DNA of 64,000 bases, from NCBI GenBank assembly GCA_006503475.1, contig RSEH01000065.1, positions 62,001 through 126,000 on the forward strand, in the 5' to 3' direction. The stretch is from Stentor roeselii. Its lineage: Eukaryota; Ciliophora; Heterotrichea; Heterotrichida; Stentoridae. A program made the translations under genes and the position numbers. The stretch's first letter is position 1; each line of letters starts with the position of its first letter. Below, in pieces: positions 1-64,000 of the stretch. Under the pieces are notes generated by a model, which did not search any database, had not been told where the DNA came from, and saw nothing but the letters and a program-made list of their open reading frames with translations.

Positions 1-1
1 T

Positions 2-3000
2 TTAAGAATTTATTGTGCGATTTTGCTTTGTATTCGATATGCTTTTCAGTTTTTGATTTACTTTGATGATTATTCAGTTCTTGATAAGGTTGGACTTGAG
101 GTTTATGATAAGACTTTCATGGTTTATTCTAATTTTGCAGTTGACTCGCTTTATGCTTTTGGTTGTATTAGGCTGTGGATTTCTTGTAAAAATGAAAATA
201 CTGGAATGAAGGAAGTGATTGATGGGGAGTTAAATGCTGAGAATATTGATAATAAGGAGAATAGCACAGAGAAAGGTATTGACTTAAAACATTATCAGAA
301 GAAATTTCGTAAGTTTTATGTTAAGTTCATTTTTTCTGTTTTGCATTTGATCATTTTTGTGGTTATTGCTTGGCTTGCTGTTTATTGGAAACTTTCCTTG
401 AGCATGGGGATGTACTTAGTGGTGGTTCTGGTTTATTGTACTCAATTGACTTTTTTTAGCTATACAACTATTAATGTATTAACGAAAATACTCAATGATA
501 ATCAAGATGAGATCATGGAACTAAAAAATGAACTAAACAATATAAATGTTTCAGAAAAAGATAAAAATTTATTGTTTCAAGAGTTAGCATCAAAGGAGAA
601 TGAACTTATCCAATTCAAAAAAATGTCTGAGGATCCGAAGTTTCAAGAAAATTATATGAGAATGGATTATATTAAAAACATTGAGGAAGAGATCATTCAA
701 CTTCAAACTAATAAGCAGGATCTTACTCATAAATTAAAAGAAAAAAAAAATTTTTTAAAGCAATTGAAACTTAAACAAGAAAATATTGAAAAAGATTACA
801 ATAATAAAATGAATAAAATAATTGAATTTGAATGGCATCTTAGAGTAAGACTCTGGAGACAACTCATGACGTTGAGTTTGATAAACATTTGTATGGGATA
901 TCTCAGATACTTCTGTTTAATGGAAATCAGCGAGTTTGACCCAATGATAGAAACTATTTACTTATGTCTGGGTTTCAGTAAATTTAAAAGTAGCCTTTTT
1001 ATTGACATTTACGGTTATTTGATAGTTTTTGTCTCTGTCATTGTTTTAAGGTTCGCGATAAGTGAAACGAAGCCTAAAGTAAGAGCCGCTAAAAGTAATA
1101 AGGATTATTGGGATCAGCAGATATCTTTAACTGGACAATTAAAAAGAGGAGACACTTTTGGGAAGAAATTAATTGAAAAGGCTGTCGAAAAAGGGATGAA
1201 AAATACAATAAGTAATTATTTCATTATTCGGAAAATTCAAAGGATCAAAAATAAACTTTCCAAATACAGGATGATTATTTTTTTCCAAGATTCTTTTAAA
1301 CAGCTTATTTATGTTTTGGTTTTTATTGTTGCTATACAAAGGTTTAGCTTGTTTTCAGTTATTGAGTTATTTATGATCACCATAGCATTTTGCTTTAAAT
1401 ATCCCAAAAGAGAAATATTGAGTGCCATTACTCTATTTTTTTCAATGATTACTCAGTATTTTATCTATATAATTTCTTTGAATTCTATAATTTCTCCTGA
1501 AATGATGCCAGATTATATAGCGAAAATATTAAAAAACTTTGGAATCTTGGAGTTTTTAGAAGGTCGGTCAGTAAACCAGCAAATGACAATATCTTTCTTG
1601 GGTTTAACAAAAATTCAGTTCAATTTGGTATTCTGGCAACTATTCACTTGCACAATGATCATGTTTTTATTGATTCATTTAAGTTGGACAAAGCAAAATG
1701 AAAAACTTTGCAATTTGATCTTACCGTCTCCACATTCAATTAAAAACAACGAATTAATCCCAAAAGAAGTGATAATAACAAAATCATTTATGTATACAGT
1801 CATAAGCTTAATATACAAATTTTCAAGATTCTTCTTGATTTTGCTTGCTTTTTTCATCAGTGTTTTATCAAAAAGTTTATTTTCAATCATTTACTTTGCA
1901 TGTTGCTCATACTTCTTATACACTGAGAATCTTTTAATATTGCATCAAGATGAAAAAAAGGAAAATAAAGATAAAATTTTGGTCAAAGTAAACGATGAGG
2001 ATAACCTTCCTGATGAAAAAAAACCTGAACCTCATAAATTAGTAACAAAATCACAAACTTTAACTTATGATAGAATCAAAAATGACGGTGAGCTTACTTC
2101 TCAAAACAACCCAGATGAAAAAACCATTATAAAAAAAGTCCTCAACGATAAAATCGGAAACTATCAGACCATTCTTAATATCTTTATCGCAATCAACTTC
2201 ATTGAAATTTGGTTCAATTTCAGTTATAACATTTATTCTTTTTATCTAAAGAAAAATAGTTGTTTACACCCTGAGGATAAATTTTGCAATTTAACTAACA
2301 CTGAAAACGCAATCTACAAGATATCTTTACAAGCAATAGTCCTTTGCATGGCAATGTTCATAAAATCTATGCTGAAAGACCCTTACTCAAGAGAATACCA
2401 GATCAACGAAATCTTTAGAATTAAACAAGAATCTCGAAAAATCTTCAAAAACATGACCTGGGTGTTTTACCGACTGATGCACAAAAGAAAAAAAGCAAAT
2501 CTCGCTAAAAAAGAGAAACTCGAGAAAAAAATGAGTGACTTAAACCCAGTGAAAGTTTCCTTCGAAGAATCAATTCGTCAAAACTGCCAACTTACCCCAT
2601 CCATGTCAAACCCTGAATCATTCAACAAGCTTCATTTCCCAAAAAAGACCTTCGAAAGTGAAAGTAACATTTTAAGCGAAGTTCTAATCTACTGTATAAA
2701 CTACTCTCTCTTCGATAAAAGAATGCAAAAATTCTTGATTCCAGGAATCGATTTAGAAAACAAAAGAGAAATTTCAAAAAAACATAAAGATTTAACAAAA
2801 TCTCGAGAAAATCTCTTTACAAAAGGAAAATTACGCTTAGAGTTAGACCTATTCAACATAACAAGACGTGTAAGTCTCACTTCATATGAACCCCTTGCAT
2901 CCGAAAGGCTTTCTCTACAGTCTCCCCGAGATCATCAAGTAAAATTAGACCCTCAGTCAAACCCTCCTCGTTTAGTACTTCACACTTCTTACCGAGTGAG

Positions 3001-5410
3001 TTGGAAGGACATTCCCGAGCTTCTTTGTTACGCCTTGATCAGTAACATGGACTACGTAGTTTACACTTCTTTCGTTATAAACCATATGCAATACGGTCGC
3101 ATTGAATCACTTATTTTTCCTTTGACTGTCTTCGCTTATGCAATTCTTGAATTTCCTCGTCCACCGATGAGGTATTTTCGAATAATGCTTCTTTATACCT
3201 TCGCTGTTATTCTTGGAAAACTCTTGTTTCAATTGGATATTCTTGAAAAAAATAAATGGGTTCAAGAGTTTCAAGATCCTTTTTATTTTGGATTTAGAAG
3301 GGTTAAAGATAATGAGTTTTTTGGGTATATCTTTTGGGATATTGTTGTTATTTTTAGCTTGCTTTGCAGGGAGTATTTTATTATTAGGATTGGAGTCTGG
3401 ACACGAAAAGAAATTGATGTTGATGCGTATAGTGAGGTTAAGGAATGGCTTACTAGAAGTCAGGAAGATTGGCAAGGTGCTAAATTTAGCTCCTCTTGGA
3501 GGGAGCAAGTTGAAAAATGGCTGGAGAGTATTGAAACTACTAGCTTTTTTAAGAGGCTTGTTCCTGAGGTTTCGTTTGTTAAACCTGGAACTGATTTATA
3601 TTTGTGTACTTATACTATGCAAGTAGTTATTTTTGTGTTTCTGATTGTTTGGTTCAATAAAATTGATGGATTTCATGAAGATATCTCAACTTCTATAAAA
3701 GCGAGTACTTTTCAAGGACGTATGGTCTTAGTTTTACTATTTATGATCTGCTTGATTGTTTTCGACCGGTATGTCTATTTGAAGCACTCTTCAATCGTGA
3801 CAGGAGAGGTTTCGCCATCAACCAAACCAAAAGATGGATGGAACCGTATGAAAAGTTTGAGGTCCAATGTATTTAAGCAAACTTCAAATATTTCTGAAAC
3901 TCAAAAACTTGATTACAACACAGAAAATAAAAAAAATATTGAAATGCTTCTTAAAATAAAACTTACTCTTCATTATTTACTTCTTATTTCAGTTCATATC
4001 GTCATTTTCTGGTATTTGCCTTATGAGACTCGAACAAAAGATGGTTACCAAAAAAATAACTATATTAAAGCTTTGTATTTACTTTTTATTATTTACATAG
4101 CCTTTCAGTCACTTCAGTTTAAACTTGGCCTTCCAACTTTTAGAAAATATTCTTTTCCACTGTTAAAAAAACCGACTGCATCTTCGAAAATGATGATAAA
4201 AATTTTTAGACTTTTACCATTTGTTTATGAAATTCGAACACTTATTGATTGGACCTTTACCAAAACCGCATTAAATCTCTTCCAATGGACAAAACTCGAA
4301 GAAATTCAATTCCGAATATTTTTCAACGAATGTACTCAAAACAGTTTAAAATACCGAAGACCAGGTGAAACAATCCAAATAAAAGAAAAGTGCATGTACG
4401 GAATAATCCCTCTAATAATAGTGATCCTAATAATCGTTCTTCCTCTCGTGATTTTCAGTACTTTAAACCCTTTAAGCTACCCAAACAAAATCCTCCAAGC
4501 AAGTCTAGAAGTGAAGCTTCTAATAAACGACCGTAGTTTTAACTTATACTCAGTAAACTCAGCAGACAGTATCATAAACGTCGACGAATTTTTATTCAAC
4601 AAAGAAGGATTCGACCAAAGCGTAGAAATGAACCCAGACGATTACACCCGAATGCAACAAATCAACATGCCCATCGGCCCTGACCTCAACTGGGAAGCGA
4701 CTGACTTGGCCGAGATTCGCATGAAAAAGCTGCTGAATGGTCATTTACATGAAGAAACTAATACAACTGTTAAAGCTCGACTTGAAATCAGTATTTTAAG
4801 GGAATACCCTAGAAAATATGAGAAATCGAAAATTATCAATGAAAAAGAACTGTCGAGAGAAAATTCTGAAAATCTTCTTGATGTACTTGAAAATCACTCG
4901 AATAAAGAGATTGTGGTGGAGTCTTTACTTTATACGGCTTTTAGATTACCTAGTGTTGGGACTGATATTAATTTTATCAGTTATTCTCAGGATGATTATA
5001 CGGCTCCTTTGAATATTTCTTTGTTTAGACATGAAAATGGAAGGTATTGGAAAGTTGCTTTTGATTGGGATGAAGGGGGAGAGATTGGGCCTAGGTTTTA
5101 TGTGATTTCGGATAATTATTATATTGGAGCTTTTAATTTCTCTGTTGTGACTTTTTATGTTTCTATTGTTTATTTACTTGCAAGAGTTATAAGGAATATC
5201 TTTTTTACTTATAGTATGAATATTGTTATGACTGATACTAAGAATTATGAATATTTACAGGCTTTGTGTTCTATGATATATGTCAGTAGGATGACAGGGA
5301 ATATCTATGAGGAAGAACTGTTTTATTATGAACTTATTGATGTGCTTAGAAGTCCTGAACTTATTAAAGTTATTACGAAAAGCTCAAAGTTGAAAGATAA
5401 ACTAGATTAA
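2..5410 (+). CDS. PIEZO: Piezo-type mechanosensitive ion channel (5' end outside window)
   Basis: A single frame is open from the window edge to a TAA, giving about 1800 residues, so the N-terminal part of the protein lies upstream; Piezo proteins usually exceed 2000 residues. The visible part has many hydrophobic segments in repeated blocks, a coiled stretch near residues 150-270, and a C-terminal region that fits the Piezo cap and pore: an extracellular domain (about 1490-1700) followed by the inner helix and the motif YVSIVYLLARVIRNIFF, then a cytosolic tail with the family-typical EEELFYYELIDVLRSPEL. Piezo forms trimeric, stretch-gated cation channels in the plasma membrane. In a contractile ciliate a role in touch or shape sensing is plausible but inferred. 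No intron is needed in the visible part. Confidence 0.93.
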   Translation, partial: LRIYCAILLCIRYAFQFLIYFDDYSVLDKVGLEVYDKTFMVYSNFAVDSLYAFGCIRLWISCKNENTGMKEVIDGELNAENIDNKENSTEKGIDLKHYQKKFRKFYVKFIFSVLHLIIFVVIAWLAVYWKLSLSMGMYLVVVLVYCTQLTFFSYTTINVLTKILNDNQDEIMELKNELNNINVSEKDKNLLFQELASKENELIQFKKMSEDPKFQENYMRMDYIKNIEEEIIQLQTNKQDLTHKLKEKKNFLKQLKLKQENIEKDYNNKMNKIIEFEWHLRVRLWRQLMTLSLINICMGYLRYFCLMEISEFDPMIETIYLCLGFSKFKSSLFIDIYGYLIVFVSVIVLRFAISETKPKVRAAKSNKDYWDQQISLTGQLKRGDTFGKKLIEKAVEKGMKNTISNYFIIRKIQRIKNKLSKYRMIIFFQDSFKQLIYVLVFIVAIQRFSLFSVIELFMITIAFCFKYPKREILSAITLFFSMITQYFIYIISLNSIISPEMMPDYIAKILKNFGILEFLEGRSVNQQMTISFLGLTKIQFNLVFWQLFTCTMIMFLLIHLSWTKQNEKLCNLILPSPHSIKNNELIPKEVIITKSFMYTVISLIYKFSRFFLILLAFFISVLSKSLFSIIYFACCSYFLYTENLLILHQDEKKENKDKILVKVNDEDNLPDEKKPEPHKLVTKSQTLTYDRIKNDGELTSQNNPDEKTIIKKVLNDKIGNYQTILNIFIAINFIEIWFNFSYNIYSFYLKKNSCLHPEDKFCNLTNTENAIYKISLQAIVLCMAMFIKSMLKDPYSREYQINEIFRIKQESRKIFKNMTWVFYRLMHKRKKANLAKKEKLEKKMSDLNPVKVSFEESIRQNCQLTPSMSNPESFNKLHFPKKTFESESNILSEVLIYCINYSLFDKRMQKFLIPGIDLENKREISKKHKDLTKSRENLFTKGKLRLELDLFNITRRVSLTSYEPLASERLSLQSPRDHQVKLDPQSNPPRLVLHTSYRVSWKDIPELLCYALISNMDYVVYTSFVINHMQYGRIESLIFPLTVFAYAILEFPRPPMRYFRIMLLYTFAVILGKLLFQLDILEKNKWVQEFQDPFYFGFRRVKDNEFFGYIFWDIVVIFSLLCREYFIIRIGVWTRKEIDVDAYSEVKEWLTRSQEDWQGAKFSSSWREQVEKWLESIETTSFFKRLVPEVSFVKPGTDLYLCTYTMQVVIFVFLIVWFNKIDGFHEDISTSIKASTFQGRMVLVLLFMICLIVFDRYVYLKHSSIVTGEVSPSTKPKDGWNRMKSLRSNVFKQTSNISETQKLDYNTENKKNIEMLLKIKLTLHYLLLISVHIVIFWYLPYETRTKDGYQKNNYIKALYLLFIIYIAFQSLQFKLGLPTFRKYSFPLLKKPTASSKMMIKIFRLLPFVYEIRTLIDWTFTKTALNLFQWTKLEEIQFRIFFNECTQNSLKYRRPGETIQIKEKCMYGIIPLIIVILIIVLPLVIFSTLNPLSYPNKILQASLEVKLLINDRSFNLYSVNSADSIINVDEFLFNKEGFDQSVEMNPDDYTRMQQINMPIGPDLNWEATDLAEIRMKKLLNGHLHEETNTTVKARLEISILREYPRKYEKSKIINEKELSRENSENLLDVLENHSNKEIVVESLLYTAFRLPSVGTDINFISYSQDDYTAPLNISLFRHENGRYWKVAFDWDEGGEIGPRFYVISDNYYIGAFNFSVVTFYVSIVYLLARVIRNIFFTYSMNIVMTDTKNYEYLQALCSMIYVSRMTGNIYEEELFYYELIDVLRSPELIKVITKSSKLKDKLD

Positions 5411-7684
5411 TTAGGTTAATTAGAACTTTAGAATTTATTTATTATGGAGTTTTAGATTATTGAACAAGGAAATAATTTGATATTATAGATTAGAAGTTGA
5501 GTAGCTTAATATGTTTAAATTAAGGAACTTAGTCAAGATATCAACTCTTTCCGTTGAAATAAAATTTTTTCCCAGTTCTCAGAATTTGATTTTGACTTAT
5601 ATTAAACTTACTCTAGAAATCAAATTCATATAGTTTCCTAATTATCACTCCTCTTTTAAAATTTAAGATACCCTCTTAAATAATAAAGATTATAGACCTA
5701 TATCCGATAATTTCAACTAGCTGTCAGTTTATCTAAGATATAAAGTGAAAATTTATAGCTGAGTCAAGGTTAATTCAGGAATCTATCAAAAAAGTAATTC
5801 AAACAACTACAGGATACTTTTAAGAGAAAAGTAATTAGTGTTATGATATTTAAAGAAAGTCAAATATGAATCAATATAATATAATTTTTCTTGGATTATT
5901 TAAGTAATGGGATTTAATATAAGATTAAATTACTTATATAGTGTGAATTAATAGTTTCGAAAAGCAAAAATAATTCAGTATATTAATAAAACATTACTTT
6001 TTGTTAGCCTTATGTCTTTTAATTAGTATTCTAACCGATTCTTACCCAAATTATTATCATTTCGATATCTGAATTAACTTAAAGTAATAACACATATCTA
6101 GTTATAGTTAGGATTTTTTTAGTCTAATGAATTAAGAAATAATTCTTAAAAGTGAATTATAACTGTGAGTCTTTCCGTTAAAAAAAATCAGCTAAGGATA
6201 TTCTTTATACCAAATGATTTAGGTGGTATTCAAAGATGATCACAGAAACTGGCTTGCAGCCGAGCCTTTTAATCAAGAAAAACAATTCAATAGCTTTAAA
6301 TTTATTATTCCTCAAGAAGAAGAGTGATCTTAGGCACTGCCTTTGTAGAGAAAGTAGAATAAGACCAATATTTGTCTTTGAATTAAGAAACAATTCTAAC
6401 TGCTGCTCATATTTTTAAAAATTTTATTGTTAAAAGACTAAGTGATTGCTTCCTTGGTTCTTTTACATTTGATATGAGATCTATTTAAAGGAAATCCAGT
6501 TGGAAAGATTAAATCAGATTTTTTAATGATCCATTAAATGAAGAAAGCATTTAAGTACCTGATGATTGGATTGTCTGTGAAAATATACATTGAATTAAAG
6601 AAGCATTTAAGTACCAAATGATTGGATTCTATGTGAAATTTGGATTCAATCTATATCAATTACTAAAAATCGCTAATTACTTCCTTATAAAGAATTAAGA
6701 TAATCTCCTGGTTATCCAAGAGAAGTTAAACGAGAAATTTGTGCTTTGAATTGATTATAAGGGAGACTTGACATTCTTGTATGATTTAGGATATTAATAA
6801 TTAAATTATTAAATTATAAACTATGTTATTACTTATCTGGGATTCTATTTGGATTATGCGATCTTGTGAACAATATAGAAATAAACTTATTAAAAGTTTA
6901 CGTTTAGAAGTACATTATGAGTGTGCTGTTCAAGTGCATTAAAGACTTTAGAATTTCAAGTGCTTATTAAAGTTTTACTTTTTAAAAATTCTCTAAACAA
7001 GTTTTGGGCTATTCAGTCAACTCAAATATTTTCTTTTATCTTTATGATATTAGTTATCAGTGAGATCCCCAGTGAATACATTTCATTTTTGAGAATCAAC
7101 ATCTCTGAAAATTTCTGAACTAGAATAGAACTCAATTTGAATTAAGACTTTCCAGATGCTTAAATTTTTTAGAAAATCTAAGTATTAATAGAAGATAATT
7201 ATGAAAATCAATAAACTGATAACAATTTTATTATTATTTCTTGAGAATTTTCAATTTATTGAATAGAGGTAATACATTAGTTCTATTAAGGGTTTTATTT
7301 GAATAGAATTAAGATATTATTTAAAGGTAAAGGATAAAATGTAATTATTGAAAAGGTAATTATAGTAAGCACAGCTACTTCTGATAATAAATTCCATCTC
7401 CTAGTACATTTATTTGGTTAAATTTAAAATCAATCATATTCTTTCGATATTAAAGCAGGAAATCTAGCTTAAAATTAATTATTATTTAATTCCAATAAAA
7501 TAATCAGAAAAACAATAACGTTCATTATTCACTGGCTAATTACTCAAAAATCCAACCTAATATAAATGAAGGATTTTAAATTTCCTTTGGGCTTGCAGAT
7601 AAACCTATAAATTTAAATGATTTAATTAAAATTCTAAAGCTACTTCTAAAGCTCATCTAATTCATTCCTTAATTAATCCACTAA
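5411..7684. other. 2.3 kb gene-free AT-rich stretch
   Basis: This is the longest spacer in the window, between the Piezo stop and the 3' end of the next minus-strand gene. Open frames here are at most about 65 codons, lack recognisable motifs and look like chance. No tRNA B-box was seen by eye. The only structure noticed is a 56-bp tandem duplication, listed separately. It may hold untranslated sequence, a decayed gene or a non-coding RNA that cannot be recognised from sequence alone. Confidence 0.6.
6547..6640. repeat. Imperfect tandem duplication, period 56 bp
   Basis: The segment beginning GCATTTAAGTACC at 6547 recurs at 6603. The two copies match with a handful of substitutions over about 38 bases, including the shared ATGATTGGATT. 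It lies in a gene-free region; no function is suggested by the sequence. Confidence 0.7.
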
Positions 7685-14569: not shown

Positions 14570-15245
14570 ATAGATAGTGTAATTTTTATAATTAGAGAAT
14601 TTTTTAAGTAGGAGGTTTTGGAGAGATCTTTTAGGAATGTTTATCCAAAATAAAAGAAGACCTACCAGATCCTATCTGCCCATTAGTGAAATAAATCAAA
14701 AGTTGTATAAGAAATCAATATCTAGAGAATTAAACACAATATCCTGATTGGTATATCATCATTGGGACTATCTTTGACCATTACCTCTTCTCCGCATCCT
14801 TAAAAACCTATCGAAACAGCTAGAAGGAATACTTTTCATCAACTCAAGACTATAATTTTTTAAATTTATCAATTAATTTACTTATTAATATTGAATGGTT
14901 GAGGTTTGAGTCAGAAATCCATTTCATTAACTATCGCGTATTGCTCTAATTCAATCCTCTAAGATAAATAATGTTGAAAGGCATCAAAAGAAGTAGTTGA
15001 AGTACTATTCTATTCAAATAATTATTGAAATGGTTTCTTGTAAAGTATGAAGTACCTTAGTCTCTAGAGTTCATATAAACTATTTCAATAATAAAGTACC
15101 TCGATAGAAAGTATATAAAAAAATCATCCTTAAGATATCTTCTTCAAATTTATTAAATAAATAACTAATCTAACTGCATCCTCAACCTAAAATATTCCCA
15201 AAAATCTAAAACTTAAACCAATAAAATCGAACACATTACTATTAC
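14570..15245. other. 676-bp spacer between convergent kinase and kinesin genes
   Basis: Both flanking genes end here, so the stretch must hold their 3' ends. Apart from an inverted repeat at 15022-15091 nothing was recognised. The plus strand is C-rich and G-poor towards the kinesin end. Confidence 0.5.
15022..15091. repeat. Inverted repeat able to form a 15-bp hairpin
   Basis: TTATTGAAATGGTTT at 15022-15036 is matched by AAACTATTTCAATAA at 15077-15091, leaving a 40-nt loop. The single non-Watson-Crick position would be a G-U wobble if the plus strand were transcribed. It lies between two convergent genes, so it could be a 3'-end signal, an RNA structure or the trace of a small inverted-repeat element. 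Confidence 0.55.
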
Positions 15246-18200: not shown

Positions 18201-18386
18201 AGGGTCTTCGACGAAACCGTCGTGGGACCAGTAGCTGTAGTCGAAGAAGAACTCTTTGGTTAGCTCGGGACTGTAAACTTTAGTCATTTTACCTTGCATG
18301 TCTACGCATAAGACGGCGCCTTCGGATTTTTCACGGTTGTTGAATGGACGCACTCGTACTGCCACTTTAACTGAACTATCACTCAT
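15246..18386 (-). CDS. Kinesin-3 family motor with FHA domain and C-terminal CaaX-like box
   Basis: A 1046-residue protein. The motor domain fills residues 1-370 with P-loop GQTGSGKS at 106-113, switch I region NATSSRAHT and switch II DLAGSE. A forkhead-associated domain follows near 480-590, then coiled coil rich in Glu and Lys (about 590-690), then a region like the KIF1 stalk (HLQPIEDDTMAIIDDHGNNQ) and a C2-like segment near 850-920. These features mark kinesin-3 (KIF1/UNC104), plus-end motors that carry vesicles or ciliary cargo along microtubules. The usual C-terminal PH domain is absent. Instead the protein ends SSSCCNVF, which fits a CaaX box and suggests lipid anchoring; this is inference. 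Confidence 0.92.
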   Translation of the reverse strand: MSDSSVKVAVRVRPFNNREKSEGAVLCVDMQGKMTKVYSPELTKEFFFDYSYWSHDGFVEDPDSGMMVKDNPSSRYADQRLVYNDLGVGVLNNAFEGYHCCLFAYGQTGSGKSYSMVGYGKNKGIIPIVCEEIFKRIASVESNTLHCEVQASMLEIYNEQIQDLVKPPSDRVKGGLKVREDPKSGVYVEGLSKTPCSNYDEISAVLDKGNNNRTVAATQMNATSSRAHTVLTICFTQIMYDDTGKPLNRKVSNINLVDLAGSERAAKTGATGDTLKEGANINKSLSTLGRVITALAKKATGGSKEVVPYRESSLTRILQNALGGNSKTTMIAAISPATYNLEETISTLRYADQVKSIKNQAIVNETPQEKLIRELKEENEKLKAMLEGKSFSGGVGDSRANDELRIQYERQIEELKRQKEEAERTYQDRVKETHRTPALHSDTSKANLKTPHLSNLNEDPLLSGFIQHGFKKGTNRIGKKNPNNPPDITVDGLGIAIDHCVVEYQNDTCTIFPSSDPSAKTLLNGKPLLKPTVLENQTRLRFGNHNYFLYIDPEELSSSTFDWEHAVKEANEDQVRGLLGNQDEELKAKEEQLKKKLEAEFEEARKKMEEEKKQLEEMMKNRNKTDKAAQKALADREQELLARQRAMEDELRRKEQVLKEHEDNRNALERLKKLLAHAIQQINEANERALLLGKNVKYQPELYREGGGIGKGLQNTNVRVKVIYPDISEDFQIHWSFDKLEGRMIDMQEICNQLDLGGDLNEIDLDYDPFTDNVESLSDTYHLIGQAYFYTDTVFHLQPIEDDTMAIIDDHGNNQGALKVSVLISVEGLDLETFDTLKDLLGKELSMNIKIYEAIGIPENFSSKTFCAYTLNALQGEEFKTPMVDETTTNPKFNYSAMHKLPINLEMADDLLNRALTISIYGDMSAAKKEREMSKIKASNKDFSHTKSLKKSFKDMDSISPINHLPVNDHSSSHIGPSILANPLSEDTDALRAELEIKEQQLQKLKAEQLRKEVEYNKRIQELQEREAKLNIEPPAKRSSSCCNVF

Positions 18387-18621
18387 TTATAAAGGTTAGG
18401 ATTTTTGGGATTGGGAAAAGTTAGTTGGTTGGAAAGGTTTAGAAAAATTTGGAAATTTTGAAGTGCTTTGATGAAAATGGTTTATTTTAGAATTTGGTGA
18501 ATTTCATGGTTTTAAGTTAAAATCAAGAGATTCTTTTAAATTTTAAAATATTTTAATCATAGATAAATCTTCGATTTAATCAGCTAATATCCAGAAGTAC
18601 CCATAAAGAGAATATAAAATA
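18387..18621. promoter_or_regulatory. Divergent spacer between kinesin and coproporphyrinogen oxidase
   Basis: These 235 bp separate two start codons and must contain both promoters. The plus strand is G-rich next to the kinesin gene and flips to C-rich next to the oxidase gene. No specific element was recognised. Confidence 0.45.
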
Positions 18622-20297: not shown

Positions 20298-20316
20298 CTA
20301 TTATAATCCTTCTAAC
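20298..20316. promoter_or_regulatory. 19-bp spacer between divergent start codons
   Basis: The whole intergenic sequence is CTATTATAATCCTTCTAAC. It contains a TATAAT-like core, but no known heterotrich promoter consensus could be applied. Confidence 0.55.
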
Positions 20317-20742: not shown

Positions 20743-20770
20743 TATGAAGATGACTATAAATAAACTATAA

Positions 20771-21613: not shown

Positions 21614-21692
21614 TTTTTACTTGATTTAAATTCTGGAAAAACTCGTTAATCGAGGCTTCGTGAAGGTTATAATTTTTCATCTGGTATAATAA

Positions 21693-22796: not shown

Positions 22797-22807
22797 GTTT
22801 CTAATAA

Positions 22808-23701: not shown

Positions 23702-23706
23702 TTTAA

Positions 23707-25990: not shown

Positions 25991-26017
25991 TAATGGTTTT
26001 ATGATGATGTTACTAAA

Positions 26018-46725: not shown

Positions 46726-49700
46726 ATGGAAAAACCTAAGAATCATGAAAAGATGTGTAAAGAAGTAATCAAGCTCTGCTCAGACTTGACTTTTCCCGCA
46801 AAAGCGACAGTTCTAAGCCACTTATACAAGCGCACCAAGCTTCTCAACGAGTGCTCTTCAGAGTACTTAAAAGACCTCTCATGTCCGTCAATCTTCAAGA
46901 CTATTCGCCTTTTCCTATCAGCAAAGGAAAAGGACAGCAGAACCACAGCGTTGAAGGTCTTTAGATACCTCTGCTCCTGCCCACAAAGCTTTGACACTCT
47001 GCAACAGTCACACATTGACCACTTCTTAGTTAGGGCCTTCGAACTCGAAGGCCGGGGTGAGGAGCGCATGGAGGCATGCAAGTTGATCAGGAAGTGGCTT
47101 GAAGTCGCCCCTGAGACTTTTCCTAAAAGTCTATGTAGCAGTCTTGTATCACTTGGGGATTGTGAACAGGATGATTTGAAAGAATTTAGCATCGAGGCTC
47201 TGAGGTACTTAACTAGTCAAAATTTGGAACTTGTTGCGTGGAGTGGAGGACTCAGGGTGTTAATTTTAAGTGCTTTGGATCTTAAGTGCACACAACATTT
47301 AAGTGAAAATATCGTCTTGACCATCAACTTTTTGATAAATGAAGCTGAGTCAAGAGCGTTTTTGAAGAATGGAAAGGAAATTGGAAGGATTTTTTCTGTT
47401 TTTACTGATTATGAAGCAGGTTTGAAAGAAAATGAACTCGAAGCTGCCATCAAACTTGCCAGGAAGTTCTTGGTTGGTATGGTTAAAGCTTGGCCTGGAC
47501 TGATTTATTTGGTTTCTTGTGGGTTTGAACAAGTTGTTAATATGCTCGGATTCCCGGTTAAGCCCATCATTAAGGAAGGAATTCTTGAAACTTTAATGGA
47601 AATGGTCTGTGTTCCAGTTGATAGCTCAGTTAAGTATTTCAATATACTTAATAATTATTTGGCTTTACTTGTTAAGGGACTCTTGCATTGTGGACTTTAT
47701 AATGCACTTAGTCATTGTGCACTTGATAAAAATACTAGAATCGCTCATCGAGCTCGTAATTTGTTGAAAGTGGTCACTAAAGTCGCAAGCGACCTACTCC
47801 CTGAATCCCCACAAGTAAGTCTAAACCTAATCTCCGGAAACGAAGGAAAAACAGCAGAGCTCGTAGCAGAAATAGCAAACTCAGCTCGAATCACTAACAT
47901 TCTAAGCGATTCCAACATGTTAAAACTTTCCTGTGATTTTATCTCCTCAGATTCAGGAAGTTCAACAACATCGAGCGTGATTTTAGTAAACCTTTTAAAG
48001 CAGCACATTTTGAACAGTTTAGACGACACTCAATACTTAAACCTAATCAACAGAAGTCAAGTATCAAAAGAAGTAGCGAAATGGGAATGGCCAATAATCC
48101 ACGAAATAATATCAGGACCAATCTCGACCCCTCTTCGCTTCATCCACCCTCAAAGCCAGAAGTTCTTAAAAAACCTTGTCGGTTACTTCATGCCTTCCAA
48201 AGGTCTCTTCTCAAGTCTTCCATGGCACCCTTGCAATTTTATCAAGTCTCGAGTAGGCTGGTTGTTAATAACTCTTCTTCTTTCCCAAGAAGAAGGAATT
48301 TCTCTTCTTTCAACAACTTACTCTGAAAGTTTCTTCGTAGTCCGCAAGTCATACATGGGAGAATTATCAGATGCTTTAGAAGAAGAAGTAAAATTTGAAG
48401 AGTCTCAAAATAACTCAAATTCACGAGTTTTTCCTTCAGAAAAAGTAAAAAAATGCATGGCTCGGGAGTACTTTCGATGGATCGGGATCTTTCTCAGTAG
48501 CAGGTCAGGAAAAAAACTGCTGAAAACTTATAACATTGACTCAAAAATCATGAAACTTGCGACAGTTGAACACCTTGCACCTGTTTTACTTACAGTTTTA
48601 GATTTTAAAGAAGAAAATTCTCAGCAGTTTTTAAATTTGATGCTGCAGTCTAAAAGTAAACTGCTGAGGTTGAAAGCGATTGAGTGCTTGAGAGGGATTT
48701 ATCGTTCTGGAAGTTTTAACTTGTCATGGGCTATCTGGGGATTGAAAAGTCTTTTACATTCGACTGATGTGGACTCGGTGACTTCTTCGATTTGCTTGTT
48801 GGATGAACTTTGCCAGTTTAAGGAGAATTTGTTGACTTTGATTGATACTGGTCCACAGATTTTGCTGAAATTAGGAGAATTGGGAAATCAGGTCTTGATT
48901 AGGTTCTTGTCTAGTTCAAAAGGGGTTCAGTACTTGGCTCAGATGGATTATATACAGGATGAACTGGAAAGGTGGAATGGTTTCGCGAATCAGGAATATA
49001 CACAGATTATTGAGGAAAAAGTACAACATGGACTCACTGCGCCTAAGAAAATGTTTGCTTTGGTTGTTCATGTTCCTAAACCTTTTCAACTATCGGATAG
49101 ACTTCAGCTTAATTGGATTTCGAAATTGCCTTTGAATATGATTGTTAATTGGCATGGAGGGAAAGTTGAAGTGGATTGTCTTGTTGAACTTGATAAAGAA
49201 GATGCTTATCTCACCAGTTACTTCGATCACTTCGACATCACTAACTTCGAAGGTCTCTCCGCTTCCCTTCTGCTCGGGCAAAGCAGTATCGATTCAAAAG
49301 GTTCAGAAACCCGAGAAGCCCTTCCAGTGAAATGTCCTCGAGAAGCTTCATCATCTCCAAAATCCGATTCCCATCATTTCGAGTCCTCAGGTGTTATTTT
49401 TTCTCTATCATCAGGTCGTCTTCTAAAAATTTCCTTCCGTCTTCAAATCCTTCCAAAAGGAGTTCCATCTCTTCAAATCCCCAGACACTTCTTCGGAGAA
49501 TTAGCAAAAACTTCTTCAGGAATCGAGTTTCTTTCAAGTTCCAAGCACATCGAAAGTTACTTAAAGAAACTATCAGAGCCTCACCCAATAATATCGAAGC
49601 GTGCATGGATTTGGGCTTTAGGTCATACAGGGGCAAGTAATACAGGAGCTAGTTATCTTTTAAGTCATTCTGGAATTGACTTACTTGTTAAAACTGCGGA

Positions 49701-50202
49701 AAATTCAAAGGTCTTGTCATTGAGAGGAACTGCTGCACAAGCCTTGTCTCTTATTGCTAGGTCACCTCTGGGTAGGACTGAGTTGAGGAAGTATTGTTGG
49801 GTCTCAAGTCAGGCTTATTCTTCTTCGATTGCTGTTCCTGATAGGGCTGAAAAGTTTTTTTGGGTCGAAAGGAATGAAAAGGTTTTTCCTTTTGAACAGA
49901 GATGTGAAAAAATTGAAAGGATTTTTGATGGGCTTAAGATGAGTGAGGTAGAAAAAGAAATTTTTAGACATGTTTGTCTTCTTGGAAGTCTAATGAATAA
50001 AACGGCAAGTGAACAGTTTTTAAGGAATTTAAGGAATAATGCCCCGTCAACATTTGCATCAGCTCCATTATTCCACGCTGTGATGAGTGCCTTGGCTGGT
50101 TTCAACTTTAAAATGAGTACTCGTAGGATTATTCATAAGTTATTTGAAAGGGCTTATCGCATGGAAAATTTCAAAGAAATGGATGAATTTGAGTTTATTT
50201 AA
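46726..50202 (+). CDS. RICTOR: RICTOR/Pianissimo, TORC2 scaffold subunit
   Basis: A 1158-residue helical-repeat protein. The diagnostic region lies near residues 925-1050: RHFFGELAKTSSGIEFLSSS, then RAWIWALGHTGASNTGASYL and KVLSLRGTAAQALSLIARSP, matching the conserved RICTOR domain (human ...WALGNIGSSNWG... and ...LSIRGTCVYVLGLIAKT...). The N-terminal 600 residues are armadillo-like. RICTOR defines TOR complex 2, which controls AGC kinases, cell polarity and the cortex. The gene is single-exon and sits 19 bp after the AMT-family gene and 9 bp from the convergent PKG gene. Five or more strand-composition blocks alternate along it without disturbing the protein. Confidence 0.9.
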   Translation: MEKPKNHEKMCKEVIKLCSDLTFPAKATVLSHLYKRTKLLNECSSEYLKDLSCPSIFKTIRLFLSAKEKDSRTTALKVFRYLCSCPQSFDTLQQSHIDHFLVRAFELEGRGEERMEACKLIRKWLEVAPETFPKSLCSSLVSLGDCEQDDLKEFSIEALRYLTSQNLELVAWSGGLRVLILSALDLKCTQHLSENIVLTINFLINEAESRAFLKNGKEIGRIFSVFTDYEAGLKENELEAAIKLARKFLVGMVKAWPGLIYLVSCGFEQVVNMLGFPVKPIIKEGILETLMEMVCVPVDSSVKYFNILNNYLALLVKGLLHCGLYNALSHCALDKNTRIAHRARNLLKVVTKVASDLLPESPQVSLNLISGNEGKTAELVAEIANSARITNILSDSNMLKLSCDFISSDSGSSTTSSVILVNLLKQHILNSLDDTQYLNLINRSQVSKEVAKWEWPIIHEIISGPISTPLRFIHPQSQKFLKNLVGYFMPSKGLFSSLPWHPCNFIKSRVGWLLITLLLSQEEGISLLSTTYSESFFVVRKSYMGELSDALEEEVKFEESQNNSNSRVFPSEKVKKCMAREYFRWIGIFLSSRSGKKLLKTYNIDSKIMKLATVEHLAPVLLTVLDFKEENSQQFLNLMLQSKSKLLRLKAIECLRGIYRSGSFNLSWAIWGLKSLLHSTDVDSVTSSICLLDELCQFKENLLTLIDTGPQILLKLGELGNQVLIRFLSSSKGVQYLAQMDYIQDELERWNGFANQEYTQIIEEKVQHGLTAPKKMFALVVHVPKPFQLSDRLQLNWISKLPLNMIVNWHGGKVEVDCLVELDKEDAYLTSYFDHFDITNFEGLSASLLLGQSSIDSKGSETREALPVKCPREASSSPKSDSHHFESSGVIFSLSSGRLLKISFRLQILPKGVPSLQIPRHFFGELAKTSSGIEFLSSSKHIESYLKKLSEPHPIISKRAWIWALGHTGASNTGASYLLSHSGIDLLVKTAENSKVLSLRGTAAQALSLIARSPLGRTELRKYCWVSSQAYSSSIAVPDRAEKFFWVERNEKVFPFEQRCEKIERIFDGLKMSEVEKEIFRHVCLLGSLMNKTASEQFLRNLRNNAPSTFASAPLFHAVMSALAGFNFKMSTRRIIHKLFERAYRMENFKEMDEFEFI

Positions 50203-50211
50203 TAATCAATG

Positions 50212-52890
50212 CTAAAAATCAATGTCCCAGTTTTCGGTGTAGTTGCTGTGACGCTTTGTTTTTGGAATGGTTTCTTTTTCCTCGATTTTTGTTATCACTT
50301 CGTTTAGACTTTTACCGTTTCTTACTGCGTTTTCTATGTCGGCTTCTAAGCTGTTGCATTGAGGCGTGAATGGGGGTTTCAGGTCTTTACTTGCAAGTTT
50401 ATCCCAGTTGAAACCGATGAACCAGGGATTGGCTTTGAAATTTTCGATAGACCCAGCAGTTCTAACAGCCGGATTTTTACTTAAAAGTTGATTGATGAAC
50501 TCTTTGACCTTATTTTTATTATCAACCCATTTAGGAAAAACAAGTCGTCTCTCCTGAACCTTTTCATAAATCGTATAAGGATTACTTTCATCTTCCCCAA
50601 ACGGTACATTTCCAAACAAAAATTCAAAAACCATGACTCCAAGACTCCAAAAGTCAGCACTAAGTCCATATCCATGTCCAGTGATGACTTCGGGTGCCAT
50701 ATAATGCGGAGTTCCAACAATAGTATAAGTCCTTCCATTGACAAACTTAGCAGTTCCAAAGTCAATCAACTTGGGATACCCTTCAGCATCAATCACAACA
50801 TTTTCAGGTTTCAAGTCTCTAAAAATAATATTCCTTTCATGAAGATGTTCTAAAATAAGACTAATACACCCAGTGTAAAACCTGGCATCACATTCTTTCA
50901 ACAAGTTAAGTTCCCGAAGCACATCAAACAAGTCCATGCCTCGAATGAACTCAACTAAAAAATAAACTCTTTTCGAATCTTTAAATGTTTTTACAAGTTT
51001 CATGATCATCATATGATCAAGTTGCAAAAGAATTTTCCTTTCCAAGACAATATTTTCCTCGATTTCATAAGCTTCGACTTTTCGTCGATCAACAGTTTTC
51101 AAAGCGTACATCGTTCTTTTAACTTTATGCATTGTTAAAAAGACGTTGCCGAACATTCCACTTCCGAGTTTTTTGATTATTAGTAAGTCAGTTAGTTGAA
51201 TGCTGTCGTCTTGTAGGTCGATTCGCGTCATTAGAAGCTTTTTTGAGCCTTCGCTGACGAATTGAAGAAAGTCTTTCTTGAAGATCACCCAGCACTCGAC
51301 TTTTTTGCGGGCGATGACTGAGGCTGTTCGGATGTTGTTGAATAAAAGACTTCTTTCGCCGAAGTAGTCGTGTTTTGTTATGCTTCGGATTGATTGGCCG
51401 TCTTTTATTATGTCTACTTTACCGGATTTCACGATGAATAAACAGTCTCCTGGGTTGTTTTGCTCTACGATTGTGTCTCCATCGTTGAATTCTTTTATTT
51501 TTAGGTGAGTTGCTAGTTGAGTTAGTTGGTCTTGTGATAGCCCTCGCAGAAGTTGGACTCGTTTTAGCAGGTTTATTACTTCGTTGTTTGATGTTACCTC
51601 TTTGAAACTTCCTCCAATAGCATTAAAAAACCCAGAACTCGAAATCATTGCAACATCAGTTTCACAAACAGCCACAAAATTATCACTAAAAATATCACTG
51701 ATTTCATTGATAACTTCTTCAGCTCCAACAACATCAAACAATTTAAAAGTAATATCTCGAATTTTGAATCTCTTGACTTCTCCTTTGACAACAACGATCA
51801 AATTTTCACTTTTTTCAGACCCCGCTGGAATAACGATTTCTCCCTTTTTAAAAGATTTGACTTGCATGAAATTGATGATGTTTTCAGTTTGTTGCTTGTC
51901 AAGTTTTTTAAGAAGAAGATTTTTTTCAAATGCGATTTTTATGGAATTTTTGTAGATGATTTGTCTGATTGATGTTCCGAAACATCGGGATAACTCTTCA
52001 CTACTTAGACCTAAACAAACCACGTCTTCTAAGGCGACTACTGAGGCGGTTCTTGCTGAACCGTAGAGTAAGGCCTGGTCGCCGAAATAGTCACCTTTTT
52101 CCATTCTTCGTATCACTTTTCCTTGCTGGGTGCAATTGACTGAACCCTCTTTTATTATGTATAACAAGTCGCCTGGGTCTCCTTCATTAACAATCTTTAC
52201 CCCCGATCTATAATTAAAAATAGTCAAGCAATGAAGCAAACTTTCTTTCAAATCATCACTCAAAATATCAAACAAGGCAATCGAGTTAATGAAAGATTTA
52301 TTTTCCTGATAATTCTTAACATTCAAGTCCTGCAAAATGCTTCTAAAAGCAGTTCTATCCAAAGTCCAAAAAGAACTATTAATGATCGACTTAACAGTAG
52401 CACTTCTCGGAGTATCATGAATCAAAGCCAGTTCACCGAAGCTGTCTCCAGGTTTCAAACTATTAACTTTAACTTCATTAACAATCACATCAACCCTTCC
52501 AGTTGAAATAATAAAAAATGCGCTTCCTTTCGACCCTTGATTAAAAATGACTTCATTTGAATGAACTGCAAAAAGCCTCATCTTGTCAATGATCAAAAAT
52601 TTCTGATTTTCTGTCATTGTTGAGAAAATGAAGTGCTTTTGAAGGCAGAGGTTTATTAGTTTTATATCTGATGAAGATTTCACCTTCTCTATTTCAATTG
52701 CGCCTGGAAGGTCCCCTGATTCTACTGGACGGATTCGGTGGTCTACTACTGCTCGCTTTTGTTTTAGGTTTTTACGGTTTTGAGATGATATGTCTTGAAA
52801 TGGTTTTTCTTCTGGCTTTGATTGAAGTTTACTTGGTTTTCCAGATATCGGGTGCTCTAGACCTGATTTTTTACTTAAGCAGCCTCCCAT
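50212..52890 (-). CDS. PKG: cGMP-dependent protein kinase with four cyclic-nucleotide sites, acylated N terminus
   Basis: Read from the ATG at 52890 the protein starts MGGCLSKKSG, a classic N-myristoylation plus palmitoylation signal; an ATG six codons upstream would hide it. Four cyclic-nucleotide-binding domains lie in series: phosphate-binding cassettes FGELALIHDTPRSATV, FGDQALLYGSARTASV, a third without a recognisable cassette, and FGERSLLFNNIRTASV. The AGC kinase domain (about 565-830) has LGSGMFGNV, FRDLKPEN, IDFGTAKF and APEVI. Three intact sites plus a degenerate third is the arrangement of apicomplexan PKG. Membrane-bound cGMP signalling is the likely role. Confidence 0.93.
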   Translation of the reverse strand: MGGCLSKKSGLEHPISGKPSKLQSKPEEKPFQDISSQNRKNLKQKRAVVDHRIRPVESGDLPGAIEIEKVKSSSDIKLINLCLQKHFIFSTMTENQKFLIIDKMRLFAVHSNEVIFNQGSKGSAFFIISTGRVDVIVNEVKVNSLKPGDSFGELALIHDTPRSATVKSIINSSFWTLDRTAFRSILQDLNVKNYQENKSFINSIALFDILSDDLKESLLHCLTIFNYRSGVKIVNEGDPGDLLYIIKEGSVNCTQQGKVIRRMEKGDYFGDQALLYGSARTASVVALEDVVCLGLSSEELSRCFGTSIRQIIYKNSIKIAFEKNLLLKKLDKQQTENIINFMQVKSFKKGEIVIPAGSEKSENLIVVVKGEVKRFKIRDITFKLFDVVGAEEVINEISDIFSDNFVAVCETDVAMISSSGFFNAIGGSFKEVTSNNEVINLLKRVQLLRGLSQDQLTQLATHLKIKEFNDGDTIVEQNNPGDCLFIVKSGKVDIIKDGQSIRSITKHDYFGERSLLFNNIRTASVIARKKVECWVIFKKDFLQFVSEGSKKLLMTRIDLQDDSIQLTDLLIIKKLGSGMFGNVFLTMHKVKRTMYALKTVDRRKVEAYEIEENIVLERKILLQLDHMMIMKLVKTFKDSKRVYFLVEFIRGMDLFDVLRELNLLKECDARFYTGCISLILEHLHERNIIFRDLKPENVVIDAEGYPKLIDFGTAKFVNGRTYTIVGTPHYMAPEVITGHGYGLSADFWSLGVMVFEFLFGNVPFGEDESNPYTIYEKVQERRLVFPKWVDNKNKVKEFINQLLSKNPAVRTAGSIENFKANPWFIGFNWDKLASKDLKPPFTPQCNSLEADIENAVRNGKSLNEVITKIEEKETIPKTKRHSNYTENWDIDF

Positions 52891-53205
52891 TTTTGTAACG
52901 AGTTTCATAAAGTGGGTTTAGTGAGGTTGGGAAAAAATTAGTAATGGAATGTTTTAGTTGGTTTGTTAAATAATATTAGTTTGATTCTTTTTTTCACTAT
53001 AATGTATTAATTCGAGGTAATGATTTAAAGCATTTTCGTGAAAAATTGAATTTCTGTAACATATCTACTTGTAAAATATTAGGTTTCTTCTTTATTTAGA
53101 ATACCAAAAGGAAACTCTAAAGGTGTTAAGTAATATTCAAAATTTAGATGGGATATAATTTAACCTAATCAAACCCTTCATAAGTACAAATCCAAATACA
53201 TAAAA
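52891..53205. promoter_or_regulatory. Divergent spacer between PKG and a small gene
   Basis: These 315 bp separate two start codons and must include both promoters. AT-rich; no specific element was recognised. Confidence 0.45.
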
Positions 53206-63628: not shown

Positions 63629-63641
63629 TTATTCAAACTTA

Positions 63642-64000
63642 CTATCTTTTAAGCAAAGTGAGCAATCTAAAAGCGGCAGCTCCACCCATTCCAAAAAGTT
63701 CAGAATCCTTCTCATTGCTATTTCTGCTTGTAACCAACAACAAAAATCCAACAAGTACAGCAGGAACAGGGAAAATAACCAAATAAATAGTATCCCAGGG
63801 TCTTTTCATGATAAAATAAGCTAAAACAGCAGCAACAGATGCTCTCTGAGAGTTAAAACTCGGCAAATTGCTCCTATACCTATTCGCCAAGTAATAATTC
63901 CCAGCGAAATTAGATGCAGCTCCAGCAAAATAAAGAGTATAAAGTCCAGTCCCTCCGACCATCGACGCGACTTGTGTTCCAAAGAAATAAAGAGTCAAAC
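63642..64000 (-). CDS. Rhomboid-like membrane protein, C-terminal part only
   Basis: The frame is open to the window edge; about 119 C-terminal residues are seen. The start GGTGLYTLYFAGAASNFAGN resembles the stretch before the catalytic serine helix in mitochondrial-type rhomboids. The GxSG position reads QRASVAAV and the His-bearing last helix (HxGG) reads FGMGGAAAF, so neither the Gly before Ser nor the catalytic His is visible. It may be an inactive rhomboid. Because the N-terminal half is missing, family assignment is tentative. Confidence 0.55.
   Translation of the reverse strand, partial: LTLYFFGTQVASMVGGTGLYTLYFAGAASNFAGNYYLANRYRSNLPSFNSQRASVAAVLAYFIMKRPWDTIYLVIFPVPAVLVGFLLLVTSRNSNEKDSELFGMGGAAAFRLLTLLKR

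What the first reader, a model, noticed from the sequence alone, without database searches (positions are those of the whole stretch)
1..64000. Strand composition alternates between G/T-rich and C/A-rich blocks regardless of genes
Reading the plus strand, G-over-C and C-over-G blocks of about 0.3-1.5 kb alternate throughout the housekeeping parts. Approximate blocks read by eye: C-rich 1.7-3.2 kb, G-rich 3.24-3.65, C-rich 3.9-4.68, G-rich 4.74-5.4; G-rich 18.0-18.5, C-rich 18.56-19.0, G-rich 19.02-19.44, C-rich 19.45-19.88, G-rich 19.9-20.23, C-rich 20.26-20.74; G-rich 21.78-22.5, C-rich 22.5-23.05, G-rich 23.1-23.7. Hand counts inside coproporphyrinogen oxidase: 6 G/21 C at 18661-18720, but 15 G/5 C at 19261-19320. 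Blocks cross gene ends: 49.63-50.46 kb is G-rich through the end of RICTOR (plus) and the end of PKG (minus). Non-coding DNA does it too: 19 G/2 C at 40441-40500, 2 G/12 C at 40921-40980. Neither codon preference nor transcription direction explains this. A strand-asymmetric mutation or repair process with local switch points is one idea. I know of no description of it.
Basis: seen in the sequence. Interest (0 to 1): 0.78.

Follow-up and report, generated by a model that had tools for sequence, protein, structure and literature searches.

The report
DNA strand bias flips every half-kilobase
In this ciliate's genome, first one DNA strand and then the other has lost its cytosines in stretches of about 500 bases, which looks like an inherited scar of DNA breaks at preferred spots, and might let breakage sites be read straight from the sequence.

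Summary
Synonymous-site strand skew in the window lies 48 SD above codon-shuffled genes, reverses at 400-600 bp, and strand blocks recur in 280 kb from 11 contigs. It is mutational: non-coding DNA shows it fully, codon positions 1-2 and amino-acid content weakly. Each block has lost C to T on one strand, most before G (ACG 7- to 17-fold in odds), hardly in GCT.

Correction: blocks are not independent of genes. G/T|C/A switches are enriched in non-coding DNA (160 of 307, against 72 of 300 for the reverse switch) and are sharper, near step-like; C/A|G/T switches resemble ramps. A model centred on G/T|C/A beats its mirror by 105 log units.

That polarity fits 5'-to-3' resection at recurrent germline breaks, leaving 3' single strands that deaminate, as reported around human meiotic breaks. 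Breakage is inferred, not shown. Dense replication origins would give the same polarity and shape; spacing (1.06 kb) and amplitude argue against them. Telomere repeats suggest a heterotrich ciliate; a Spo11/Top6A-family match is present, no C5-methyltransferase match was found. My literature searches (open-access library, listings partly capped) showed no description.

The parts
3148..3826 (+). G/T-rich block (plus-strand C lost) inside the Piezo-like gene
   Evidence: HMM block; Piezo domains of ORF 2-5407
4237..4720 (-). C/A-rich block (minus-strand C lost) inside the same gene
   Evidence: HMM block
4726..5534 (+). G/T-rich block crossing the 3' end of the Piezo-like gene; ends at a G/T|C/A switch in non-coding DNA near 5534
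   Evidence: HMM block; switch listed
17844..18542 (+). G/T-rich block over the start of the minus-strand kinesin gene and its upstream DNA
   Evidence: HMM block; kinesin domain of ORF 15249-18386
18541..18542 (.). G/T|C/A switch point between divergent genes (kinesin, minus; ORF 18622-19551, plus)
   Evidence: 66 bp posterior interval
18543..18894 (-). C/A-rich block over the start of the plus-strand ORF 18622-19551
   Evidence: HMM block
18897..19458 (+). G/T-rich block, later part of the same ORF
   Evidence: HMM block
19464..19830 (-). C/A-rich block crossing from the end of the plus ORF into the minus ORF 19644-20297
   Evidence: HMM block; in-gene switch near 19460
19836..20253 (+). G/T-rich block over the first part of the minus ORF
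   Evidence: HMM block
20256..21526 (-). C/A-rich block
   Evidence: HMM block
21532..22529 (+). G/T-rich block
   Evidence: HMM block
22532..23080 (-). C/A-rich block, begins at a sharp in-gene switch near 22529
   Evidence: HMM block; switch (63 bp interval)
23098..23769 (+). G/T-rich block
   Evidence: HMM block
14641..14642 (.). sharpest of the non-coding G/T|C/A switches listed for the window (16 bp posterior interval)
40143..40852 (+). G/T-rich block, largely non-coding
   Evidence: HMM block; ORFs
40853..41372 (-). C/A-rich block, largely non-coding, after a sharp switch near 40851
   Evidence: HMM block; switch (24 bp interval)
49596..50440 (+). G/T-rich block spanning the 3' ends of two convergent ORFs (46726-50199 plus, 50215-52908 minus)
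   Evidence: HMM block; ORFs
50443..51070 (-). C/A-rich block, begins at an in-gene switch near 50440
   Evidence: HMM block; switch (45 bp interval)

Best explanation
The blocks are the equilibrium footprint of recurrent germline DNA breaks at preferred sites, about one per kilobase. At each site the 5' ends are resected by some 500 bp on both sides, leaving 3'-ended single strands: the plus strand to the left, the minus strand to the right. Cytosines on the exposed strand turn to T more often, especially before G or A and rarely after G, so the left flank becomes G/T-rich and the right flank C/A-rich on the plus strand. Where flanks of neighbouring sites meet, the sign changes back gradually (C/A|G/T). 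The breaks are most likely meiotic (Spo11) breaks in the micronucleus. A ciliate may show this so strongly because its silent germline mutates very little between sexual cycles. SHOWN: alternation, strand-specific C deficit with sequence context, mutational nature, sharper G/T|C/A than C/A|G/T, preference of G/T|C/A for non-coding DNA, polarity. INFERRED: breaks, resection, deamination, meiosis.
For: (1) Mutation, not selection on codons: in non-coding DNA near genes C falls from 18.5% to 6.0% and G rises from 7.5% to 17.9% between C/A and G/T blocks; codon positions 1-2 and amino acids shift too. (2) One-strand C deficit with context: ln odds ratio -2.87 in ACG, -0.05 in GCT among confidently called sites; -1.88 and -0.04 in the joint fit. 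(3) Polarity and focus: the signed lag correlation peaks with G loss 450-600 bp downstream of C loss (9.2 against 4.6 in the mirror bin, all 29 sources; 8.3 against 1.6 in the 8 held-out ones; 20 of 29 sources positive, p 0.002). In-gene G/T|C/A switches are sharper (median 93 against 144 bp, n=123 and 192, p 1.7e-5). Simulated perfect steps give 123-126 bp; C/A|G/T (150 bp, n=77) resembles simulated ramps of 120-240 bp. A break-centred model beats its mirror by 104.9 log units, better in 21 of 29 sources and in 16 of the 22 outside the tuning set, and beats a symmetric model by 48.7. (4) 160 of 307 G/T|C/A switches have non-coding DNA within 25 bp, against 72 of 300 C/A|G/T (genome 0.296). 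(5) Precedent: around human meiotic breaks, C>N and A>N on the forward strand and their complements on the reverse strand, single-stranded DNA left of the break on the forward strand and right of it on the reverse strand, and C>T raised at CpG (PMC7615360, passages, section 8). (6) Matches to the Spo11/Top6A family and to Mnd1 in this genome. (7) Tetrahymena germline rate 7.61e-12 per site per division (PMC5585995 abstract).
Against: No break, ssDNA or recombination map is held; breakage is inferred from polarity and shape. Dense origins with the yeast skew direction would give the same polarity and a similar step-and-ramp shape. The decay of the asymmetry does not itself single out G/T|C/A: within 100 bp it is 0.172 there and 0.150 at C/A|G/T, and both fade by about 500 bp. 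In human the central +-100 bp of a break shows no asymmetry and resection is 1-2 kb a side; here the asymmetry reaches the switch and tracts are shorter. 147 of 307 G/T|C/A switches lie deep in genes and no shared motif was found, so the site preference is unexplained; enrichment within 120 bp of start codons is slight (0.140 against 0.116 random). Convergent pairs alone show no significant excess (9 against 4 of 31, p 0.27), and among held-out loci no pair type is significant alone (tandem 12 against 4, divergent 3 against 1, convergent 4 against 0). The upper quartile of observed in-gene G/T|C/A widths (189 bp) is no sharper than simulated steps (177 bp). In intervals over 2 kb (n=18) the asymmetry extends beyond 500 bp. 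The CpG context is odd for a genome with no C5-methyltransferase match. Whether this organism has sex is unknown.
Confidence: 0.47

Rival explanations
1. Replication: G/T|C/A switches are very dense, fixed replication origins, and C/A|G/T ramps are diffuse termination zones, with the leading strand enriched in A and C as in yeasts.
For: In S. cerevisiae and K. [quoted passage not shown] Step-and-ramp shape and non-coding preference here match.
Against: Mean spacing of G/T|C/A switches is 1.06 kb (n=278), so forks would have to start at the same points every kilobase in nearly every S phase. The mean all-base GC-skew jump across inferred switches is about 0.42 between the 50-bp bins on either side (computed; alignment on inferred switches inflates it), against 9% reported at yeast origins (much wider windows). 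In intervals of 1.4-2 kb (n=52) the asymmetry falls to about half by 500-600 bp, as in 1-1.4 kb intervals (n=63), rather than stretching to the midpoint; but intervals over 2 kb (n=18) do stretch.
Confidence: 0.18
2. Selection on translation: T- and G-ending (wobble-read) codons alternate with C- and A-ending ones to pace ribosomes or co-translational folding.
For: Synonymous third positions carry the strongest coding signal, and genes begin C/A and end G/T in sense orientation.
Against: Non-coding DNA shows it fully; codon positions 1-2 and amino-acid content shift the same way. Homologous positions of old paralogs do not share block state consistently: agreement 0.60 (<35% identity, 43 pairs) and 0.415 (35-50%, 6 pairs); young ones do (0.889, 8 pairs; 1.0, 1 pair).
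Confidence: 0.04
3. Transcription-coupled mutation or R-loops.
For: Gene starts and ends carry opposite sense-strand signs; the excess of G/T|C/A is stronger at promoter-bearing (tandem, divergent) than at convergent spaces (52 of 102 against 9 of 31, p 0.04).
Against: Both signs occur along single genes, and alternation persists more than 600 bp from ORF ends. Downstream of starts the template strand, not the exposed non-template strand, has the C deficit. The ciliate germline nucleus is described as transcriptionally silent (PMC5585995 abstract).
Confidence: 0.07
4. A processive enzyme (AID/APOBEC-like deaminase, or RIP-like methylation and deamination) acts on one strand in patches not anchored to breaks.
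For: Strong sequence context; strand-coordinated tracts are known for such enzymes (recalled).
Against: Unanchored patches give no preferred order of signs; order and sharpness are asymmetric. No C5-methyltransferase match. 5' T is not favoured as for APOBEC3 (motif recalled). An APOBEC-like model (NAD1) gave no match, but that search rang in none of the 14 controls, so it is uninformative. Such an enzyme may still act on break-derived ssDNA.
Confidence: 0.1

Closest known systems
Strand-asymmetric mutation around meiotic double-strand breaks in human (PMC7615360; passages and section 8 seen)
   Same: Polarity (forward-strand C changes where the forward strand is single, left of the break; complements right), CpG-enriched C>T.
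   Different: There rare de novo mutations around PRDM9 hotspots, 1-2 kb of resection a side, no asymmetry in the central +-100 bp; here the standing base composition of a compact genome, half-kilobase tracts, about one site per kilobase, asymmetry up to the switch.
Strand-coordinated mutation clusters (kataegis) in ssDNA at breaks, yeast and cancer (search listing only; the rest recalled)
   Same: Strand-coordinated C>T, sign switching at a break.
   Different: Single events in one genome, TC context for APOBEC (recalled); here recurrent, germline, context (A/C)C(G/A).
Replication-origin skew jumps in yeasts (PMC3459929; passages seen)
   Same: Polarity, intergenic preference, sharp origin and diffuse end.
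   Different: Far closer spacing and larger jump here.
Large skew jump at Candida albicans centromeres, judged not replicative (PMC3459929; passages seen)
   Same: A strong local skew jump (74%) not due to replication.
   Different: Reported at centromeres only.
Subtelomeric purine skew of ciliate nanochromosomes (Nyctotherus, PMC2633312; passages seen)
   Same: Ciliate, strand-asymmetric composition.
   Different: Purine/pyrimidine skew in the first ~130 or last ~70 nt of chromosomes and in coding strands; here keto/amino alternation throughout.

Membership tests
Meiotic-break-associated strand-asymmetric mutagenesis | C changes on the plus strand left of a focus and on the minus strand right of it | tested here: met
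Meiotic-break-associated strand-asymmetric mutagenesis | C>T raised in CpG context | tested here: met
   (from composition, not observed mutations)
Meiotic-break-associated strand-asymmetric mutagenesis | Symmetric centre of about +-100 bp between asymmetric flanks, as in human | tested here: inconclusive
   asymmetry reaches the inferred switch, but switch positions are resolved only to about 50-190 bp in genes
Meiotic-break-associated strand-asymmetric mutagenesis | Focus coincides with mapped breaks or DMC1-bound ssDNA | not testable with these tools
   no such map held
Meiotic-break-associated strand-asymmetric mutagenesis | Genome encodes meiotic break machinery | tested here: met
   TP6A_N (shared by Spo11 and Top6A) E 3.9e-18; Mnd1 E 2.3e-19 (one TAG inside the frame)
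Replication-origin skew | Polarity as known for yeasts | tested here: met
Replication-origin skew | Skew extends to the midpoint between foci | tested here: inconclusive
Replication-origin skew | Replicon-scale spacing and modest amplitude | tested here: not met
   1.06 kb mean spacing; jump about 0.42,
Transcription-associated skew | Sign follows the transcribed strand through the gene | tested here: not met
Translational codon selection | Restricted to synonymous sites of coding DNA | tested here: not met
APOBEC3-type kataegis | Preference for 5' T (recalled) | tested here: not met
   ln odds ratio for 5' T -1.38, 5' A -1.67, 5' C -1.77
RIP / 5-methylcytosine decay | C5-methyltransferase in the genome | tested here: not met
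   0 candidates for PF00145; the same search rings in 10 of 14 controls; the genome may be incomplete

The most novel reading that the evidence does not exclude
The break sites are specific, programmed germline break points, for instance where internal eliminated sequences or MITE-like elements sit or sat, about one per kilobase and half of them inside genes. The somatic genome would then carry in its base composition a readable map of programmed germline breaks across the whole genome. Switch density here is 0.89 per kb; Blepharisma stoltei, another heterotrich, has about 40,000 such elements (PMC9942856 abstract) in a somatic genome of roughly 41 Mb (recalled). Nothing here tests this link.
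Probability: 0.13. Interest if true: 0.92.

Novelty: new variant of a known kind. Interest (0 to 1): 0.76.

Why it matters
If the reading is right, meiotic (or other programmed) breaks are the main source of germline substitutions in this lineage, strong enough to shape codon use and protein composition, and the genome sequence alone yields a map of recurrent break sites where I know of no such map. It would make testable whether silent ciliate germlines mutate mainly during sex. It also warns that codon-usage, selection and phylogenetic analyses in such genomes face strand-switching mutation bias at the half-kilobase scale.

Tried and rejected
Simple GC variation (isochore-like): not enough; C/T and A/G sites correlate oppositely, and a two-state model started from AT-rich/GC-rich states moved to a similar strand-asymmetric solution, at lower likelihood. 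GC variation exists too: a four-state model with added AT-rich and GC-rich states fits better still (+2219 against +1354 log units over one state). Sequencing or assembly artefact: rejected; the effect is largest at synonymous and non-coding sites and small at codon position 2, and long reading frames are intact. Wobble/translation rhythm: entertained, dropped. A motif at G/T|C/A switches: none found; in-gene posteriors span about 50-190 positions (5-75% quantiles), too coarse for a base-level motif. Plain windowed correlation of C and G fractions gave only weak values (Spearman +0.03 to -0.19) because codon-family baselines were not removed. Dating through paralog substitutions was not pursued. 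Relatives: no heterotrich genome was reachable. An 18S search failed (tool error). The four PF00383 deaminase-family matches could not be read further. Odds: on rereading, the decay profile does not by itself separate the two switch types and the human centre lacks asymmetry, so I lowered the best explanation from 0.50 to 0.47 and raised replication from 0.17 to 0.18.

Data used: and the window part of 42: the window alone; the window + L001-L020 (264 kb); the window + L001-L020 + L027-L034 (29 sources, 344 kb). L021-L026 (telomere, UDG and Spo11-family loci) were not used in statistics. One search tuned rates on 7 of the 29 sources. In one search the codon-family means for the lag test came from all 29 sources, held-out ones included; the HMM parameters did not. 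One search used the 157 switches with coding DNA 450 bp to each side and got widths for 150. ORFs were called mechanically (at least 100 aa, no introns), so some non-coding DNA may hold short or split genes; non-coding DNA gives denser observations, which affects both switch types. Gene-end tests dropped pairs overlapping by more than 30 bp or more than 600 or 500 bp apart.
Full report
WHAT WAS GIVEN. The window is part of a 44.4 Mb, 522-contig genome (G000:C440:62001-126000). The genome holds CCCTAACA telomere-type repeats (220 forward and 327 reverse matches, none for the reversed control; the first 100 places were listed, several of them at the first bases of contigs). That repeat is known from heterotrich ciliates (recalled). 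Long ORFs, up to 1159 aa, are open under the standard code, so a Stentor-like heterotrich is likely (recalled: Blepharisma reads UGA as Trp). 40 mechanical ORFs cover 81% of the window. Pfam matches were found for 6 of the 8 ORFs tested, among them Piezo, kinesin, a protein kinase and an ABC transporter.

All four hand counts are exact and all 14 named blocks have the stated sign. For each synonymous site I took the deviation from its codon family's mean. In the window, sites of the same class (both C/T or both A/G on the plus strand) correlate at about +0.12 within 60 bp, sites of opposite class at about -0.05, and both reverse sign at 400-600 bp. The rest of the contig (100 kb) behaves alike. 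In 100 kb from ten other contigs the short-range signal is present (+0.09 to +0.10; opposite class +0.006 to -0.025), the opposite-class term turns positive, but the same-class term only falls to about zero. Against within-gene synonymous shuffles the window lies at z 48.5 (near) and -23.6 (400-600 bp); all 29 sources at 89 and -45.7 (20 shuffles). A two-state strand-asymmetric HMM gains about 1350 log units over one state; a start from AT-rich/GC-rich states ends in a similar solution; four states, adding AT-rich and GC-rich ones, gain 2219. On eight stretches not used for fitting (L027-L034), linkage between sites gains 640 log units.

IT IS MUTATIONAL. States were called from third positions only. 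In G/T against C/A blocks the non-coding DNA within 150 bp of a synonymous site goes from C 18.5%, G 7.5% to C 6.0%, G 17.9%. Codon positions 1 and 2 move the same way in GC skew, more weakly. In sense-G/T blocks Trp, Val and Gly rise; Pro, Ser and Thr fall. So the process acts on DNA and selection filters it. Relative to the other strand, the affected strand lacks C mainly before G (ACG ln odds ratio -2.87, CCG -2.66, TCG -2.18), then before A; a preceding G protects (GCT -0.05). These come from confidently called sites; a joint fit gives smaller values with the same extremes (ACG -1.88, GCT -0.04). The genome has no match to C5-methyltransferases and one to uracil-DNA glycosylase, so decay of methyl-CpG is not an obvious cause.

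THE TWO SWITCHES DIFFER. On the plus strand a change from G/T-rich to C/A-rich (G/T|C/A) is its own reverse complement, and so is C/A|G/T; any difference between them is independent of strand choice. G loss lies preferentially 450-600 bp to the right of C loss (signed lag 9.2 against 4.6 in the mirror bin; held-out 8.3 against 1.6; 20 of 29 sources, Wilcoxon p 0.002). Within single genes G/T|C/A switches are sharper: median 93 bp (n=123) against 144 bp (n=192), p 1.7e-5. Simulated perfect steps give 123-126 bp and cannot be told from 60-bp ramps; the observed G/T|C/A median (93 bp, n=73) is below both, its upper quartile (189 bp) is not; C/A|G/T (150 bp, n=77) looks like ramps of 120-240 bp. 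The asymmetry within 100 bp is 0.172 at G/T|C/A and 0.150 at C/A|G/T and fades by about 500 bp around both, so decay alone does not name the centre. A model in which G/T passes directly to C/A and returns through a neutral state beats its mirror by 104.9 log units (21 of 29 sources; 16 of 22 and 71.5 units outside the tuning set) and a symmetric model by 48.7.

RELATION TO GENES. In sense orientation ORFs begin C/A-rich and end G/T-rich, each for about 300-375 bp. In plus-strand terms the spaces between genes tend to be G/T|C/A whatever the gene orientation. With states read 120 bp inside each flanking gene: tandem 40 G/T|C/A against 9 C/A|G/T of 76; divergent 12 against 3 of 26; convergent 9 against 4 of 31 (not significant); random points 280 against 245 of 1137. 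In the held-out loci alone the counts are 12 against 4 of 20, 3 against 1 of 10 and 4 against 0 of 13, none significant. A reading at 150 bp on the window + L001-L020 gave 6 against 5 of 18 for convergent pairs. 160 of 307 G/T|C/A switches and 72 of 300 C/A|G/T switches have non-coding DNA within 25 bp (genome 0.296; Fisher p 8.5e-13). 147 of 307 G/T|C/A switches are deep in genes, and the signed asymmetry (7.9 against 2.6) is present more than 600 bp from the ends of ORFs of at least 2 kb. No motif was found at them.

MECHANISM. 5'-to-3' resection from a break leaves the plus strand single to the left and the minus strand single to the right. Extra C>T on those strands makes the left flank G/T-rich and the right flank C/A-rich, exactly the polarity of the focal switch. 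In human meiosis the same polarity (put together from two passages) and a CpG-enriched C>T are reported, with longer tracts and a symmetric centre (PMC7615360, passages and section 8). The genome holds matches to the Spo11/Top6A family and to Mnd1. Tetrahymena's germline rate is 7.61e-12 per site per division, and its authors suggest that a silent germline with asexual reproduction allows such low rates (PMC5585995, abstract and outline); that would let break-associated mutation dominate. This last step is my inference.

THE SERIOUS RIVAL. [quoted passage not shown] Polarity and shape therefore do not decide. Spacing (mean 1.06 kb) and jump size (about 0.42 between the 50-bp bins beside inferred switches, against 9% in yeast over wider windows) make origins unlikely. 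In intervals of 1.4-2 kb (n=52) the asymmetry halves by about 500-600 bp, as in 1-1.4 kb intervals (n=63), which suits a fixed tract; but the 18 intervals over 2 kb extend further, so this test is inconclusive.

NOVELTY. Of ten searches of the open-access library, those on skew or strand asymmetry listed no paper whose title or abstract start describes half-kilobase strand alternation; the others served methylation, mutation rate and meiosis. Some listings were capped (20 of 64, 12 of 25, 10 of 385), and most subscription journals are not in that library. The underlying process, if right, is a known one in an extreme form.

Noticed in passing
window 25475-37585 (mostly minus-strand ORFs): A run of Cys-rich repeat-like genes; by eye, ORFs 27359-28705 and 32283-33644 share a nearly identical stretch of about 600 bp (around 28100-28700 and 33020-33640). 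ORF 32283-33644 matched no Pfam family at E 0.001.
   Followed up: partly
window 29702-31585: ORF with a Phage_lysozyme Pfam match near its N-terminus (E 4.1e-6), set within that gene run.
   Followed up: no
window 5410-7680, 28710-29700, 31590-32280: AT-rich stretches without ORFs of 100 aa or more in my calls, where many model blocks are short.
   Followed up: no
G000 whole genome: No PF00145 C5-methyltransferase match although CpG is the most depleted context on the affected strand.
   Followed up: partly
G000:C94:62921-63112: Mnd1-family match with one TAG inside the frame, perhaps a tiny intron.
   Followed up: no
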